NCBI RefSeq assembly: GCF_000379085.1
Contig: NZ_KB905379.1
Location: 304,677-368,676 of the forward strand
DNA length: 64,000 bases
From: Halomicrobium katesii DSM 19301
GTDB taxonomy: Archaea > Halobacteriota > Halobacteria > Halobacteriales > Haloarculaceae
Reading direction: 5' to 3'
Shown: positions 57,434-64,000 of the stretch, one piece after another
How positions within the stretch are numbered: position 1 is the first letter of the stretch
Layout of the letters: each line of letters starts with the position of its first letter
The notes under the pieces: model-generated
The model's database searches: none
Told to the model about the DNA's origin: nothing
What the model saw: only the letters and a program-made list of their open reading frames with translations
Position numbers and translations under genes: made by a program

Positions 57434-57507
57434 GGGTTGGTGATCTAGTCGGTTATGATACCTCCTTCACACGGAGGAAGTCGGCGGTTCGAATCCGCCC
57501 CAACCCA
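57434..57507 (+). tRNA. tRNA-Val (CAC)
   Basis: This 74-nt cloverleaf has acceptor GGGTTGG/CCAACCC, D-stem ATC/GAT, anticodon stem CCTCC/GGAGG with loop TTCACAC (anticodon CAC, reads GTG) and T-arm GGCGG-TTCGAAT-CCGCC. Discriminator A at 57507; CCA is not encoded. A TATA-like ATTCTTAAG lies about 35 bases upstream. Confidence 0.95.
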
Positions 57508-57747
57508 TCCTCTCTTCCGCTATCTTGTAGGACAGGATATCGCACTCTGAGCCTGTTGAACCCGGTGCTTTCACTTCCGGCGAGCAACTGCCGAGTTTGA
57601 ATCCGTCATCGAAACCGACGATGCTGTCTTGCACCCCGGACACGTCTCCGCAATTGCTTGAAGGAGAAATAAAACCACGGGGACATATACTACCAGCGAC
57701 GGAACCCATACCGCTTATCAAGCATGGTGAGCAACTGTGGTGTACAG
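57508..57747. other. Spacer between the two tRNA-Val genes
   Basis: This 240-base spacer has lower GC than the flanking chromosome on its left. No gene is convincing. A TATA-like GCTTATCAA (about 57713) sits about 35 bases before the second tRNA. The minus-strand frame crossing it reads through the first tRNA and is not a gene. Confidence 0.5.
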
Positions 57748-57822
57748 GGCTGCTGGTCTAGTTCGGTTATGACGGCTCCTTCACACGGAGCAGGTCCGAA
57801 GTTCAAATCTTCGGCAGCCCAC
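57748..57822 (+). tRNA. Second, divergent tRNA-Val (CAC)
   Basis: This 75-nt cloverleaf has acceptor GGGCTGC/GCAGCCC, D-stem GTC/GAC, anticodon stem GCTCC/GGAGC with loop TTCACAC (anticodon CAC again) and T-arm CGAAG-TTCAAAT-CTTCG. Discriminator A at 57822. It is complete but differs from the first tRNA in every stem and is AT-richer in the T-arm. It lies exactly at the border of the low-GC accessory region. Confidence 0.93.
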
Positions 57823-58208
57823 TACCCTCAAAATTTCTTTAGTTGTCGTTGTAGCTGAAACAGTTTTTAAAAAGCTGTACTAATGATTATATATTCATTC
57901 GTTCGAACGATTCTACAAAAGACTGTACAAAGCGTTGTATAACTAATTGTACAATACGCCTATCAGATTGACACGTGGCATGACGAGTGCAGTGTAGACT
58001 CTCCTGACACGCTCAGAGACCTCGCTGCTACGTCTAAATCGCCACGAGATACAGGTGACCCCCACGGGACAGCCAACGAATGGGAACTCCGGTAATTCAA
58101 CCAGTTTCTCAACGTATCTTGGAGAGTTATTCGATTAGTATTCGGTTAGTGGCCACTTTACCCTCCCCGTACTGTTATCCGTAAGGGTGACCAAATTGAT
58201 AGTAGTTC
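57823..58208. other. AT-rich non-coding region between tRNA-Val and the 1325-residue gene
   Basis: This 386-base region without a gene contains TTTTTAAAAA (57864-57873), a 12-bp palindrome TCGTTCGAACGA (57899-57910), a tandem array of TTGTACAA-like units (separate entry) and an 11-bp direct repeat (TTCGATTAGTA 58130-58140, TTCGGTTAGTG 58141-58151). A TATA-like TGTTATC (58173-58179) lies about 30 bases before GTG 58209. Confidence 0.6.
57911..57958. repeat. Four tandem 12-bp units with TTGTACAA-like cores (iteron- or operator-like)
   Basis: The units are TTCTACAAAAGA (57911), CTGTACAAAGCG (57923), TTGTATAACTAA (57935) and TTGTACAATACG (57947), each starting exactly 12 bases after the previous. 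The last core is part of the palindrome ATTGTACAAT. CTGTACTAATGA at 57875 is in the same phase four units upstream. Spacing near one helical turn suggests cooperative binding of a protein. Confidence 0.6.
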
Positions 58209-61200
58209 GTGACCGATGATAACTCGGAGCAGCGTTCGATAACCGACTACTCAAATACGGGAAGTCGTTCGTCGGTGTCAGAACAGCCAGAAACGGAGGA
58301 AGAACCTCCAGCAGCTGGTGACCCAAATGAGTTTCTTACCTGGCTCCGAGAAGAGACAACTCCCGGGGCTGAGAAAGCGGCGGGCAAGTTACCAGAACTA
58401 ATCGACCAAGTTCAAGACGGTGGGTATGGAGCGTGGAGTGCTGGCAAGTGCATCGATATCATTTTGAAGGAAACTACACCGCCTATCGACTGTCCGGGGC
58501 TTGTTGCTGTTCTCGATGACGAACACGTCGATCCACTACCTGTCATTGAGCATTTGCTTGAAATCTATCCACGTGATGCTGCCGCTCTGGAAACGTCATT
58601 TGATTCTGATTGTCTCGAAAGAGACGAACTTTCACATACTGACCGGATGGAAGGGTACCGGGCACTATCTCGTCTTCCACCCGATGACAGTATATACAAT
58701 GAACTGAAGCGCACAGCAGAGATGTTCGATGGCGTAGTAGACTTGGATGAGAGGTATCCTGTTGGTGGATTCTTCCAGACATATGCGATGCGGTGTCTCA
58801 AAACCTATCTTCGATACCCGCAGGAAGCTCCGGGAGAATGTGTTCACCGGGCAATCGTGGATCATCCATGGCAAGCACTTCGCGTAGTAGCCGCCAATGC
58901 AGAGCAGGCTGCTGAGACTGATTTACTCGAACAACTGATTGAGGTTACAGATGAAAAGCCAATTCCAGATGGATTCTATCATGGCAGGGTAATTGCCACG
59001 CTCTGTGATGAATACACAGAAGTTAGTTCTCAAGATACACGGCAGGAGATCGGACATCTGATTGAGACTGTGTTAGAGGCTGGTGTGTATCCGACACAGT
59101 GGAAAGAGACGGTCCCGCAATTAATCGGGTTCTTGGAGCAAGGTGATGGTGGAGAGCAAGGCGGTGCTGTGTTGGCTTCTGTATTTGGTGCCGTCCAGGT
59201 TGAGAGTGCTGGTGATGATCTGAATAACTGGATTGACGAAATCACGAGGCGGTTAGGAGACAATGACCCGTCTCCTTGGACAGGTTCAGTAAAGGTGTTT
59301 GCTGAGTCTTGGCCTGAGAAATTATGCGAACATGTGGACGTACTTGTCACGGTAGCACGTACTTGTGACAGCGATGCTCGGACCGATATTTGTGAAGCGC
59401 TCAGCATACTTGGGGAGGTGAAACCCGCTTTGGTTCTCCCGGCTATAGAACCGCTTGTCGGTGATCTTGAACGTATCACTTCAGCGCAGGAACTCGAAGA
59501 TGTCGGGAAGATACTCCAATCACTAGGGGTGTATCCACCACCGCAACAACTCAAGAACCTGTACGGATCGACTGATGAAGAGATTGATAAGAAGGCAAAA
59601 GAGATCGTTGCCGATCTTCGGCGACAATTTCAAGGAAAGACACCGCAACTCATTCCGGGAGATGTTGAATGTGTGCAGGCGCTTTCAGAGGATTATTCGT
59701 TGGTTCGTCGAACTGGAGCAGTTACGTGGGATTCACCGTCGTTGGGGTCCGCTGAATTGTCTATTATTCAGGCGGTTGCGCGACTTGCTGCCGTTTCGGC
59801 AGAGGAAGATGAAGACCAACACAAAGCTATCTGTGGTGTTCTTGCAGAATTACTTGACACCCCACAAGAAGACCGCAATGAGCTAAATGAATCTCTTCAA
59901 TTTGTGGTGCCATCGTATGATTCGACGTGGTTTGAGTTTGCCGTGCTTGGTGCAGTCTTCGCGCAGATCGTCAATCCAGATACTCGGGTCGCTTTACACA
60001 CACCTGCTACGGGTGGATGGGGGACAAAGAAGGACGTTAGAGAAGCACTGCAGAAATACGCGCTCGCACCATCGGATGATCACACAGAAATCATCCCGGT
60101 TTTAGATCTTGTTCCGACAGCTCGGATAACCGACGAAGAGCTTACAGTAGAAACAACCGGGAGCACGGTAATTGATGATCCACCGTTTCTTACACTGGTT
60201 CGGGACATTGAACCGCTCGCAGAAGCGCCAGCTGATATCATCCTTTACAACTATCTTCCCGGAATTGATGCCGCGGATGCTGCTCAACTTCAGCAGTGGC
60301 GAGGGACGCTGACGGGTGGGTCAATTAGTGACGGTGTTGATCAAGATCCGGCTGTGTCAGCGGACGGATACGGTGAAATTGCCGATCGGGCATCATTGAC
60401 GAACTTGGTACAGGTAGATGACGTTGATCCAAACGAGTTCGACGCATGCCACCGTGACCGTCCTGTGCATATAGAGATGTACAGTATCTTCACGTCCCAA
60501 CACGCTACTGACCGGAGACAGCACGTCGGACCTCCGACCGACCTTCCACAACCGAATTTCATTGAGCAAGAAGCCGAACCAGATGAGACAGTCGCAGCCG
60601 ATGAGAAGAGTCGGAATGCAGTCGAGTTGACATCGGGATCATCTCCTGTAGACCTGCACGCAGTACAAACCGGTGATGGCATTGGCGAGTTACTCACGAA
60701 AATTGACGAGTACAGTCAGCAGATTAGCGATTCAGAGATGACCCGGGCTGTGAGGGGATTCCGGTATACGATTGGGAGTCTCCCGGTCCCTGTGGAGCTT
60801 CACGACACGTGGGTGCAGACTCAAATCGACCAGGGGAACAAATGGGTTCCACGTCAAATTAGTTCACGACGAGACGGGATTCAGGCACTCGCGGATGAGG
60901 CAGGTTTTGATGCAGAATTACTTGATGAGGTAGTCATTACAATCGATACTCTCCTTGATAGAATCGATGGGGCAAATCCGTTGTCTAAGGAACTCATGGA
61001 TGTTCTTGATAACGCCGCAGAGGGTGGGAAGCAGGTTGGAATTCTCTGTGCAAAAAAGACGTATAAAGATATGCTTGACGTATACCTCAAGGAGAAAGCA
61101 AGTAACTGGATCCTTGGTGATGATCTTCGGCTCTTTGATGAGCATACTGTCCGTGAGTTGTCCCCGGGTGAGGTGGATTGGCTAATCACGTTCGACCCGT

Positions 61201-62186
61201 TACCACCGCAGACAGCAATCTACTATCACCATCCTGCTATCGAGAAGACAATCGTATTGGGGCACGCCGATGGAACACTCGAATCACGCGTTTACGGTGT
61301 CGATTATAAACGTCGTCCGTACCTCCCCCGGTGCGTTGATGTTGAGCTCCCTGAAGTAGACGTCACAACTTACGGGAGCACACCCGAGATATCCGAGGAT
61401 GACAAGAGCCTCACCGATGATTTGTACCGGAGTTACCTTTCCGTTGCGGCGCAATCCCGTGACGATGATGGTAGTCAGTCAGGGTCCTCGGGAGAGAATT
61501 CTCGGTATCGCGTCCAGTTTGAAGAAGCAGAAGAAACAACGATGTGGGATTCCCATCCTATGATCGTCCGGTCGGAAGAACATCTTGTCTCAGCCGGGGA
61601 GTATGGGCTGCGATCCCTGTCTCGGGTCAGTAGTGGTGATGAGATGGTGCTTATTGAATCAGATGCCCGGCAGGACCTGTGGGAAGAGTTCCTCCGGGAG
61701 GATTGGGAGGATAGTGATGAAGACGCTGACGCAGAAGAAGCGTTCATGGACGCTGTTGAGTTGTGGTATGAAGCTGTCTCGACTGGTCTGGCTGCACACT
61801 CCGAGACGTCGGATCCCGGTGATGGGATTTGGGGCTTCGCGCGTGAGATTGAGTCAGACGTATCGGTCGCAACTGACACGGTCGTAGGTTGGGCGCGTGG
61901 GGTCTATCGGGCAGATTCACCGTCTGATCTTGTGTTCCGAAGTGAGCTCCGTATTGGTCCCCGGCATGCAGATGGGGTGGAAGCGGTCGCAGAGGCGTAC
62001 GGGAGCGATCGAATGGCGGATAACTGGAATCAGGTGCTCACCCGAATGAAGGCGATACGGGCGACTCATCGGCAGCGAGGAAGCGTCTTCTGGCAATGGC
62101 TTGCCGACCGTGCTTGTGATGGTGACCTGTTTGATCAGCCTGGCGTGAGCCAAGTCATCGTGTCACGGTGTGAAGAAATCGAATAA
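58209..62186 (+). CDS. Large putative defence protein: HEAT-like N-terminus, DrmE-like C-terminal part
   Basis: This 1325-residue acidic protein starts at GTG 58209. Residues about 40-480 look like helical HEAT-type repeats. Residues about 560-720 form an alpha/beta region (FAVLGAVFAQIVNPDTRVALHTP). A second alpha/beta region at about 930-1040 (KQVGILCAKKTYKDMLDVYL, DWLITFDPLPP, IEKTIVLGHADG) resembles the helicase-like half of DISARM DrmE proteins. The C-terminus has IRATHRQRGSVFWQWLADR. No intact Walker A is visible. Codon and base use are much less GC-biased than in the rest of the window. The next gene is DrmA-like. The DrmE assignment rests on my reading alone. Confidence 0.6.
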   Translation: MTDDNSEQRSITDYSNTGSRSSVSEQPETEEEPPAAGDPNEFLTWLREETTPGAEKAAGKLPELIDQVQDGGYGAWSAGKCIDIILKETTPPIDCPGLVAVLDDEHVDPLPVIEHLLEIYPRDAAALETSFDSDCLERDELSHTDRMEGYRALSRLPPDDSIYNELKRTAEMFDGVVDLDERYPVGGFFQTYAMRCLKTYLRYPQEAPGECVHRAIVDHPWQALRVVAANAEQAAETDLLEQLIEVTDEKPIPDGFYHGRVIATLCDEYTEVSSQDTRQEIGHLIETVLEAGVYPTQWKETVPQLIGFLEQGDGGEQGGAVLASVFGAVQVESAGDDLNNWIDEITRRLGDNDPSPWTGSVKVFAESWPEKLCEHVDVLVTVARTCDSDARTDICEALSILGEVKPALVLPAIEPLVGDLERITSAQELEDVGKILQSLGVYPPPQQLKNLYGSTDEEIDKKAKEIVADLRRQFQGKTPQLIPGDVECVQALSEDYSLVRRTGAVTWDSPSLGSAELSIIQAVARLAAVSAEEDEDQHKAICGVLAELLDTPQEDRNELNESLQFVVPSYDSTWFEFAVLGAVFAQIVNPDTRVALHTPATGGWGTKKDVREALQKYALAPSDDHTEIIPVLDLVPTARITDEELTVETTGSTVIDDPPFLTLVRDIEPLAEAPADIILYNYLPGIDAADAAQLQQWRGTLTGGSISDGVDQDPAVSADGYGEIADRASLTNLVQVDDVDPNEFDACHRDRPVHIEMYSIFTSQHATDRRQHVGPPTDLPQPNFIEQEAEPDETVAADEKSRNAVELTSGSSPVDLHAVQTGDGIGELLTKIDEYSQQISDSEMTRAVRGFRYTIGSLPVPVELHDTWVQTQIDQGNKWVPRQISSRRDGIQALADEAGFDAELLDEVVITIDTLLDRIDGANPLSKELMDVLDNAAEGGKQVGILCAKKTYKDMLDVYLKEKASNWILGDDLRLFDEHTVRELSPGEVDWLITFDPLPPQTAIYYHHPAIEKTIVLGHADGTLESRVYGVDYKRRPYLPRCVDVELPEVDVTTYGSTPEISEDDKSLTDDLYRSYLSVAAQSRDDDGSQSGSSGENSRYRVQFEEAEETTMWDSHPMIVRSEEHLVSAGEYGLRSLSRVSSGDEMVLIESDARQDLWEEFLREDWEDSDEDADAEEAFMDAVELWYEAVSTGLAAHSETSDPGDGIWGFAREIESDVSVATDTVVGWARGVYRADSPSDLVFRSELRIGPRHADGVEAVAEAYGSDRMADNWNQVLTRMKAIRATHRQRGSVFWQWLADRACDGDLFDQPGVSQVIVSRCEEIE

Positions 62187-62192
62187 CGAACC

Positions 62193-62230
62193 CTACAGGA
62201 TACCTGTAGATGTTCTCCTATTGTTTTCCT
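62193..62230 (+). terminator. Hairpin plus T-rich tract after the 1325-residue gene
   Basis: CTACAGG (62193-62199) and CCTGTAG (62203-62209) form a perfect 7-bp hairpin with a three-base loop, seven bases after the stop, followed by a T-rich tract (TTCTCCTATTGTTTT). This may end the upstream transcript; archaeal termination depends mainly on the T-run. Confidence 0.45.
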
Positions 62231-62238
62231 GGCAGGGG

Positions 62239-62246
62239 ATTTATAC
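62239..62246 (+). promoter_or_regulatory. TATA box of the DrmA-like gene
   Basis: ATTTATAC centred about 32 bases before ATG 62275. With the hairpin upstream, it suggests that the helicase gene has its own promoter and a very short or no leader. Confidence 0.5.
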
Positions 62247-62274
62247 CTGGATGATGCATACCATCTTATAACAA

Positions 62275-64000
62275 ATGGCAGATATTGACGGGGCATCCAG
62301 GGATGATATTGAGAAGTTCGCATCTCATCTTGTTGGTGACACGACGGATCAGATTTTGGGGGCACATATCGAACACGGTGAGCGGACACCGCCCGGATTT
62401 ACACCACGGACGAAGTTCTTTTCCGGTGTCCTAGTTCCCGAAGAGGAAGAAACGACAATCGATCGGGAAATCCAATCTCGTACATCACCGTCTTCTCTAA
62501 CTTTGATCGGTCGTGTCACTGACACCGGTGACGGAGAAACCGTCGCGTTAGACATCCAGGTTTCCTTTTCTCTGTATTATCGGGTGATTCCGACTCCGTC
62601 TGAACAGGTTGAGTCTGGTGAAAGCGTACCTCTCGTCTACCGGAAATACGAATTACAAGGGGCAAACGGTGATAACGAAGAACGCTCTGGTGTCAGCACG
62701 ACTGTTGAATTCAACGCACAAGCAGCTAACACCGGGTTTCTGTCAGATGTGTCTGTACAGGTCGAACGAGAATTAAATACGAAGATTCAGACCGCGATCG
62801 AGAATCACGTCGAAATACAGCCGGATCTCTACGAGGATGATGAACGTGCAGTTGAGGGGTACCTTTCGGACCGCGAAGGTCAAGACGACGAGGAATTCCT
62901 TACCGAACTGACTGACGGTGTTGTCGGAGGGGATTCTGAGTATGCCCCAACGCCCAACGTCGGCATCGATGTTCGCCTGCTCGAAGGGCTTGACGAAACA
63001 ACTCCCACAGAAGAAGATTCTGCAGGGAAAGCAACTGTCCGTGTCGATATTACGAATGAGAGCGACGAAGAACCTGACTTCAGCAATGTGGATCTCGCCA
63101 CGTACGAAACCCAATTAGCACTGCGAGGAACCGGCGGGACGGAATTCACCGATATGACGTTCGAAGAAGTACCTGAAGGCTTCCGCTACGACCCGTCCGT
63201 GCCAGGACAGGGAGAGAACTGTACAGTGGAACGGACCGATGATGGGGACGGCATAAAGTCAGAAACAATCCCGGTATACGAACAACCGTACTTCGGCCAC
63301 CGTCAGTTCTCGGGGGATGCCAACCCACGGTTTGATACACTTGCCGAAGACCCGCTCCCGGTTCTCCGAGCGATTCGTGGGAAGTTGAAGTCGTATAAGG
63401 AATCCGAATGGGAATCGAAATTACAGGAGGCTAAGGCAAAGGCAGACAATCCAGAATCTGACCCAATTGTTGCGGAGATCAAGGATGACATTACGGAGTT
63501 CGAACGTGAGATCGAACGGTATGACCGGGGTGTGACACTCCTCGAAGAAGACAACGAGGCGCGTGAACTCTTCCAGAACGTCAACCGCGTGTTCCTCCGA
63601 AAGGTTCGAAAGGGAGACCCGTGGGATGAGACAGCTGAGCTTGAGTATCCTGGCTGGCGACCATTTCAGGCTGTTTTCATCGTGTCCCTGCTGCCCGACA
63701 TCATGTACGAAGAACGGGATTTCGACGCCGAAGCACACAACAGAGATATTACTGACCTGCTGTATTTCCCGACGGGCGGTGGCAAGACGGAGGCATACCT
63801 AGCACTCCTCGTGTTCACGGCACTGTTCGATAGGCGACGTGGGAAGGACTTCGGTCTCTCGGCCATGATGCGGTTCCCACTTCGACTGCTATCGCTTCAA
63901 CAGTTCCAACGCGTGGTGGAGATCCTCGTTCATGCAGACGAAGTTCGCAAAGAAGAGGGCTACGGTGGCGAACCGCTTAGTGCGGGGTTCTATACCGGCA
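62275..64000 (+). CDS. DrmA-like DISARM helicase (N-terminal 575 residues, truncated by window edge)
   Basis: The frame is open from ATG 62275 to the window end. An N-terminal region of about 480 residues lacks a known motif, but TKFFSGVLVPEEEE near residue 47 recalls the start of DrmA proteins. A coiled segment lies at about 365-420. The superfamily-2 helicase core starts at about 485 with PFQAVFI, Walker A FPTGGGKTEAY (residues 498-508, Lys504) and motif Ia MMRFPLRLLSLQQFQR. The combination TDLLYFPTGGGKTEAYLAL plus RLLSLQQFQR is characteristic of DrmA, the DISARM core helicase. Druantia DruE is the main alternative. AT-richer than the chromosome. Confidence 0.72.
   Translation, partial: MADIDGASRDDIEKFASHLVGDTTDQILGAHIEHGERTPPGFTPRTKFFSGVLVPEEEETTIDREIQSRTSPSSLTLIGRVTDTGDGETVALDIQVSFSLYYRVIPTPSEQVESGESVPLVYRKYELQGANGDNEERSGVSTTVEFNAQAANTGFLSDVSVQVERELNTKIQTAIENHVEIQPDLYEDDERAVEGYLSDREGQDDEEFLTELTDGVVGGDSEYAPTPNVGIDVRLLEGLDETTPTEEDSAGKATVRVDITNESDEEPDFSNVDLATYETQLALRGTGGTEFTDMTFEEVPEGFRYDPSVPGQGENCTVERTDDGDGIKSETIPVYEQPYFGHRQFSGDANPRFDTLAEDPLPVLRAIRGKLKSYKESEWESKLQEAKAKADNPESDPIVAEIKDDITEFEREIERYDRGVTLLEEDNEARELFQNVNRVFLRKVRKGDPWDETAELEYPGWRPFQAVFIVSLLPDIMYEERDFDAEAHNRDITDLLYFPTGGGKTEAYLALLVFTALFDRRRGKDFGLSAMMRFPLRLLSLQQFQRVVEILVHADEVRKEEGYGGEPLSAGFYTG

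What the first reader, a model, noticed from the sequence alone, without database searches (positions are those of the whole stretch)
57823..64000. Low-GC, tRNA-linked defence island with a DISARM-like pair
Seen: base composition drops sharply right after the second tRNA-Val and stays low to the window end; a 1325-residue protein is followed by a protein with the DrmA-like helicase start. Known: DISARM is built on drmA, drmB and drmC, with drmE in class 2; tRNA genes are common integration sites of archaeal elements. Inferred: this is the left end of a DISARM-like or related anti-virus locus acquired by transfer. The very long first protein and separate promoters suggest a variant rather than a textbook operon.
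Basis: partly seen in the sequence, partly recalled or inferred. Interest (0 to 1): 0.8.

Follow-up and report, generated by a model that had tools for sequence, protein, structure and literature searches.

The report
Haloarchaeal DISARM island with DNA-repair partners
A salt-loving archaeon has acquired, at a transfer-RNA gene, a mobile island carrying a complete DISARM-type anti-virus system whose DNA-marking enzyme is fused to a DNA-repair-like domain and paired with a gene for an enzyme that probably repairs the mutations such marking causes; the system is of a known kind, but this repair pairing has, as far as I could find, not been described for it.

Summary
Window 57,508 to 64,000 is the left end of a low-GC island in a haloarchaeal genome (probably Halomicrobium). 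The 1325-aa protein is a divergent, extended DrmE. The next gene is a full DrmA. Beyond the window follow drmB, drmC, a 5-cytosine methyltransferase (DrmMII type) and a tyrosine integrase, i.e. all class 2 DISARM parts. A 23-bp copy of the tRNA-Val 3' end (22/23 identical) beside the integrase marks a ~30-kb element. The target is the FIRST tRNA-Val. The second tRNA-Val is cargo. Two features are unusual. (1) The methyltransferase has a ~315-aa N-terminal extension with an EndoIII-like HhH-GPD domain; this fusion is in 20 of 391 Halobacteria genomes, 19 of them with DrmA. (2) Head-to-head with it lies a Mig.MthI-like T:G-mismatch glycosylase gene, here broken by an insertion sequence but intact in relatives. 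Such glycosylases also sit beside m5C methyltransferases in other haloarchaeal DISARM loci and in 8/8 loci without DISARM. Most likely a maintenance module repairs T:G mismatches left by deamination of self-methylated cytosine. New variant of a known kind. Function, glycosylase activity and the role of the fused domain are inferred, not shown.

The parts
57434..57507 (+). tRNA-Val(CAC), the integration target
   Evidence: ARAGORN; orthologous tRNA with 88-98% identical flank in two congeners
57485..57508 (+). attL: 3' end of tRNA-Val 1. attR lies beyond the window at C2:392089-392111 (window numbering 87413-87435), about 0.2 kb from a tyrosine integrase gene (C2:390898-391863, minus strand)
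   Evidence: 23-bp match, 22/23 identical; integrase by Pfam Phage_int_SAM_1 5.8e-6 and TIGR02224 8e-15
57747..57822 (+). second tRNA-Val(CAC), element-borne cargo
   Evidence: ARAGORN; absent at this place in G059/G041; no copy above 89% identity (partial) in 96 family genomes
58209..62186 (+). drmE-like, 1325 aa, long N-terminal extension
   Evidence: Pfam DrmE_C 3.1e-5 (24.2 bits, cut-off 27), NCBIfam DrmE_fam 8e-11 (40.9, cut-off 80); 51-52% identical full-length orthologues beside drmA in G352, G257
62275..64000 (+). drmA, SF2/YprA-type helicase; runs past the window end to window numbering 65889 (1204 aa in full). Beyond it, in window numbering: drmB 65886-67700 (+); drmC 67716-68573 (+); Mig-like T:G glycosylase gene, 3' part 68589-69308 (-), split by an IS fragment 69308-69806 that holds a 100-N gap, 5' remnant about 69807-69895 (-); DrmMII-type C5 methyltransferase with fused Cys-rich + HhH-GPD-like region 70045-72297 (+); integrase 86222-87187 (-); attR 87413-87435
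   Evidence: DrmA: PADLOC 6e-134, PDB 7s9v_A 4e-54, Walker A GGGKT, DELH, QASSRVGR. DrmB: PADLOC 1e-43, 7s9v_B 1e-7. DrmC: PADLOC 8e-22, HAKALIAD. Glycosylase: PDB 1kea 4e-25; IS ends CTCAGCTTTGAACG / CGTTCAAAGCTGAG at C2:373984 and 374469. Methyltransferase: PF00145 2e-57, DrmMII 3e-65; N-part EndoIII-like

Best explanation
A ~30-kb integrative element, inserted by its tyrosine integrase into the 3' end of tRNA-Val(CAC), carries a class 2-like DISARM system (drmE-drmA-drmB-drmC plus DrmMII). By homology with the solved DrmAB complex, DrmAB would load on incoming unmodified DNA with a 5' overhang, translocate, and recruit DrmC or other nucleases, while DrmMII marks host cytosines as self. DrmE would be an accessory factor of unknown role. 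Because 5-methylcytosine deaminates to thymine, haloarchaeal versions add a maintenance module: a head-to-head, Mig.MthI-like glycosylase that excises T from T:G, and an HhH-GPD-like domain fused to the methyltransferase that most likely helps bind or present DNA, its catalytic residues being degenerate. In this genome the separate glycosylase gene is broken by an IS. Shown: gene content, homology, integration repeat, conservation, broken glycosylase gene. Inferred: antiviral activity, methylation specificity, T:G repair, role of the fused domain.
For: DrmA/B/C/MII by PADLOC and Pfam; DrmAB match to 7s9v chains A and B; intact motifs; drmE homology. Gene order kept in G352, with the glycosylase intact, and in G257, without it. 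attL/attR plus integrase. Fused methyltransferase in 20/391 genomes, 19 with DrmA, Fisher p = 1.5e-17. Glycosylase: best PDB match Mig.MthI; at the two MutY/Mig specificity positions all 9 carry A/G/S and L/F (not MutY's V and Q), with Tyr126 and Asp144 kept (PMC2714593); paired with an m5C methyltransferase in 8/8 non-DISARM loci and in more distant DISARM loci. Fused domain: EndoIII hits; the 50 best fold matches listed are HhH-GPD enzymes.
Against: DrmE scores stay below curated cut-offs and no PADLOC model matches. No function was measured; host methylation data were not available. Glycosylase genes are broken or absent in many DISARM loci, so the module is not essential. The fused-domain model has pLDDT 64, the best fold match is E = 2.6e-3, and TM-scores are about 0.3. 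Co-occurrence tests are not corrected for phylogeny.
Confidence: 0.85

Rival explanations
1. The locus belongs to another YprA-helicase system (ARMADA, BRIGADE, Druantia, Dpd) rather than DISARM.
For: DrmA belongs to the YprA helicase family shared by these systems, and BRIGADE is known only from halophilic archaea (PMC12458937).
Against: The ten PADLOC families matched by the helicase are all DrmA; DrmB, DrmC and a DrmMII-type methyltransferase are adjacent; the only solved relatives by sequence are DrmA and DrmB.
Confidence: 0.05
2. The Mig-like glycosylase (and the fused HhH domain) is an effector: a base-excision restriction enzyme attacking foreign DNA.
For: Restriction glycosylases exist in the PabI family (PMC10273834); the gene is next to a methyltransferase as a restriction gene would be.
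Against: Residues match the T:G-specific Mig.MthI; the gene is broken or partial in G000, G034, G092 and G260 while the methyltransferase and DISARM genes remain.
Confidence: 0.08
3. The HhH-GPD domain fused to DrmMII is an active glycosylase, so one polypeptide both writes 5mC and repairs its deamination (or erases 5mC).
For: HhH-GPD-like sequence and fold; catalytic-position Asp kept in 12/15 sequences (alignment A1).
Against: Asp is replaced by S, G or N in 3/15; no lyase Lys; no 4Fe-4S motif.
Confidence: 0.15
4. The glycosylase pairing reflects only the methyltransferase's own cassette (an old type II modification unit) hitch-hiking in defence islands, with no functional tie to DISARM.
For: The same glycosylase family sits beside plain C5 methyltransferases in 8 genomes without DrmA and beside separate ~378-aa methyltransferases in wider islands.
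Against: The fused methyltransferase is almost confined to genomes with DrmA (19/20), and full-length glycosylase goes with it among DISARM genomes (9/19 versus 1/33, p = 2e-4).
Confidence: 0.3

Closest known systems
DISARM class 2 (drmE, drmA, drmB, drmC, drmMII; Bacillus-type)
   Same: All five components present, drmE-A-B-C contiguous on one strand with drmA/drmB overlapping, C5 methyltransferase nearby, within a mobile island
   Different: drmE 1325 aa instead of about 785-840 aa (lengths of the NCBIfam DrmE models) and very divergent; methyltransferase carries a 315-aa extension; T:G glycosylase gene between drmC and the methyltransferase
Mig.MthI (PDB 1KEA), T:G mismatch DNA glycosylase of Methanobacterium thermoautotrophicum
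   Same: Best structural-database hit; shares Tyr126, Asp144, small residue at 50, hydrophobic residue at 187, no C-terminal 8-oxoG domain; Mig.MthI acts against 5mC deamination (PMC2714593)
   Different: N-terminal extension with an LPFGRTxV motif in the homologues; linked here to DISARM; interrupted in this genome
Haloarchaeal class 1-like DISARM with DrmMI (e.g. L088, L091)
   Same: Same fused methyltransferase and divergent glycosylase next to drmABC
   Different: Has a DrmMI-type methyltransferase (and in L091 a DrmD/BrxHII-type helicase); no DrmE detected

Membership tests
DISARM | DrmA helicase | tested here: met
   PADLOC 6e-134, PDB 7s9v_A 4e-54; NCBIfam DrmA equivalog cut-off not reached (377 of 950 bits)
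DISARM | DrmB (DUF1998 protein) | tested here: met
   PADLOC 1e-43; 7s9v_B 1e-7; below the NCBIfam DrmB_fam cut-off (65 of 240 bits), and no Pfam match at E 1e-3
DISARM | DrmC PLD nuclease | tested here: met
   PADLOC DrmC 8e-22, HKD motif
DISARM class 2 | DrmE | tested here: inconclusive
   DrmE_fam 8e-11 and DrmE_C 3e-5 but below cut-offs; no PADLOC match; shorter DrmE-like proteins beside drmA in L062 and L077 pass the DrmE_fam cut-off
DISARM class 2 | DrmMII C5-cytosine methyltransferase | tested here: met
   PF00145 2e-57, DrmMII 3e-65, motifs I, IV, VI, VIII, X intact
DISARM | Anti-virus activity with self-methylation | not testable with these tools
   needs infection and methylome experiments
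Mig-type T:G mismatch glycosylase | HhH-GPD core with Tyr126/Asp144 and Mig-type (not MutY-type) specificity residues | tested here: met
   residues from PMC2714593
Mig-type T:G mismatch glycosylase | Intact reading frame in this genome | tested here: not met
   gene split by IS with 14-bp inverted repeats
HhH-GPD glycosylase (fused domain) | Catalytic Asp, and Lys or Fe-S as in EndoIII | tested here: inconclusive
   Asp in 12/15, no Lys, no Fe-S
tRNA-integrating element | tRNA 3'-end direct repeat plus integrase at the far end | tested here: met
   relatives carry the same tRNA-Val followed by tandem scars

The most novel reading that the evidence does not exclude
Haloarchaeal DISARM has built cytosine-methylation maintenance into the immune system: the methyltransferase polypeptide itself carries a working glycosylase-type domain that edits deaminated (T:G) or methylated bases, with a second dedicated T:G glycosylase encoded head-to-head, so that self-marking and repair of self-marking form one unit.
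Probability: 0.15. Interest if true: 0.65.

Novelty: new variant of a known kind. Interest (0 to 1): 0.45.

Why it matters
Immune systems that mark self DNA with 5-methylcytosine pay a mutational price. If confirmed, this would be a DISARM-linked repair solution to that cost and would make the cost measurable: strains and relatives with intact, broken or missing glycosylase genes exist naturally, so C-to-T decay at methylated sites can be compared. It also extends DISARM's accessory repertoire, gives a haloarchaeal DISARM reference locus with defined element ends, and supplies divergent DrmE sequences for a component whose role is not established.

Tried and rejected
Second tRNA-Val as attachment site: rejected, since the far-end repeat matches the first tRNA-Val and relatives lack the second. 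Virus-borne DrmE or fused methyltransferase: no match of DrmE in the phage collection and none of the fused domain in viral contigs. Finding named relatives by DrmA in genome contigs: no hit; the fused-domain alignment worked instead. Structure of the DrmE C-terminal 830 residues: pLDDT 38, unusable. Solved relatives of DrmE by sequence: none. Glycosylase as a MutY: rejected on the two specificity positions. Class 1 typing: no DrmD or DrmMI gene was recognised among the proteins scanned between the tRNA-Val genes and the integrase. Literature on a DISARM-glycosylase link: none found in the open library, which lacks the original DISARM paper.
Full report
OBSERVATION. The window is G000:C2:304677-368676; coordinate on C2 = window + 304676. 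GC falls from 0.65 to about 0.5 at 57.5 kb and remains low to about C2:402 kb. tRNA-Val(CAC) genes lie at 57434-57507 and 57747-57822. The window has no N, so the junction between tRNA-Val and the island is contiguous sequence. The genus is inferred to be Halomicrobium: a congener contig of 418,158 bp (G264:C2) has the length of the Halomicrobium urmianum plasmid NZ_CP084091.1, with drmA at the same place.

GENES. The 1325-aa ORF (58209-62186) matches Pfam DrmE_C (3.1e-5) and NCBIfam DrmE_fam (8e-11), both under curated cut-offs, and no PADLOC model even at E = 10. The next gene (62275-65889, 1204 aa) is DrmA (6e-134; PDB 7s9v_A). It overlaps drmB by 4 bp (604 aa, 1e-43; PDB 7s9v_B), followed by drmC (285 aa, PLD). 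After an oppositely oriented glycosylase gene comes a 750-aa C5-cytosine methyltransferase. The motifs looked for in DrmA, DrmB, DrmC and the methyltransferase are intact. This is a complete class 2 gene set, with drmE the weakest assignment.

MOBILE ELEMENT. The last 23 bases of the first tRNA-Val recur (22/23) at C2:392089-392111, about 0.2 kb from a 321-aa tyrosine integrase gene. The element is thus about 30 kb (window numbering 57485 to 87435). In the two closest congeners the same tRNA-Val is followed by tandem 22-25-bp copies of its 3' end, read here as scars of a recurrent integration site, and no second tRNA-Val is present; the second gene has no close copy in 96 family genomes. The sequence natively downstream of this tRNA-Val in relatives is at C1:2792116 onward in this genome, next to further low-GC DNA with its own integrase, so the region is rearranged or mis-scaffolded beyond the first element.

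THE METHYLTRANSFERASE. Residues 1-315 precede the methyltransferase motifs. NCBIfam finds a monofunctional HhH-GPD glycosylase model at 139-264 (1.6e-4); an alignment of 15 such regions hits EndoIII in the PDB (2e-4). A predicted structure of the Halorhabdus salina homologue (pLDDT 64) has only HhH-GPD enzymes (EndoIII, OGG1, MutY and relatives) among the 50 best PDB matches listed, best E 2.6e-3, TM about 0.3: moderate evidence. Invariant or near-invariant Cys in the first 110 residues suggest a metal site (inference). The catalytic-position Asp is kept in 12/15 and the lyase Lys and Fe-S motif are absent, so activity is doubtful. In 391 Halobacteria genomes the region occurs full-length in 20, of which 19 have DrmA (52 genomes with DrmA; p = 1.5e-17). 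It is found with both DrmE-type and DrmMI-type loci.

THE GLYCOSYLASE. The oppositely oriented gene encodes an HhH-GPD protein whose best solved relative is Mig.MthI (4e-25). In nine homologues the catalytic Glu, Tyr and Asp and the four Fe-S cysteines are invariant. At the two positions that separate MutY (Val45, Gln182) from Mig.MthI (Ala50, Leu187; PMC2714593) all nine carry A/G/S and L/F. Full-length copies lie in 10 DrmA genomes and in 8 genomes without DrmA; in 8/8 of the latter the next gene is a C5 methyltransferase, head-to-head. More distant Mig-like genes lie beside another C5 methyltransferase in several DISARM islands (L146, L147, L148, L150, L151, L152, L156) and in L129. In this genome the gene is split by an IS with 14-bp inverted repeats, both halves being recognisable; other DISARM loci also have broken or partial copies (G034, G092, G260). 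The genome has six other HhH-GPD genes, one with a Mig-like active-site segment, so some T:G repair may persist.

MECHANISM. From the DrmAB structures (PMC9142583): DrmAB is held inactive by a trigger loop, loads on 5'-overhang DNA, is stimulated by unmethylated DNA and may recruit DrmC. Homology suggests the same here. The added parts fit maintenance of self-marked DNA: a T:G glycosylase against deaminated 5mC. This is inference; the glycosylase appears dispensable, since it is broken or missing in several loci.

NOVELTY. DISARM in haloarchaea is not new in kind: many named haloarchaeal plasmid records carry DrmA homologues. I found no published description of the fused HhH-GPD methyltransferase or of the glycosylase partner in DISARM, within an open-access library only. 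Verdict: new variant of a known kind.

Noticed in passing
G000:C1:2792116-2792283 versus C2:362160: The sequence that follows this tRNA-Val in two congeners lies on C1 in this genome, next to another low-GC stretch with an integrase: an island-associated rearrangement or a scaffolding artefact. A 334-bp repeat (99.4%) links C2:401060-401394 (ending at a 100-N gap) to C1:2789491-2789824 in inverted orientation.
   Followed up: partly
L005:3748-4560 (C2:383748-384560, right of the window): Nmad3 (nucleotide modification associated domain) protein in the same element; a relative sits next to drmC in locus L090.
   Followed up: partly
L142:1308-1500 and L143:1443-1650: Tandem 22-25-bp tRNA-Val 3'-end copies spaced about 80-110 bp apart in relatives: probably an integration hot spot keeping scars.
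   Followed up: partly
window 57860-57960: Several TTGTACAA-like imperfect palindromes upstream of drmE, possibly an operator; read by eye only.
   Followed up: no
L146-L151, L156: Wider haloarchaeal DISARM islands with recurrent 'FFFSGGPGAPRYGDDPTKHAVDHD' proteins (about 640 aa) beside a C5 methyltransferase and a Mig-like glycosylase; identity of the 640-aa family not determined.
   Followed up: no
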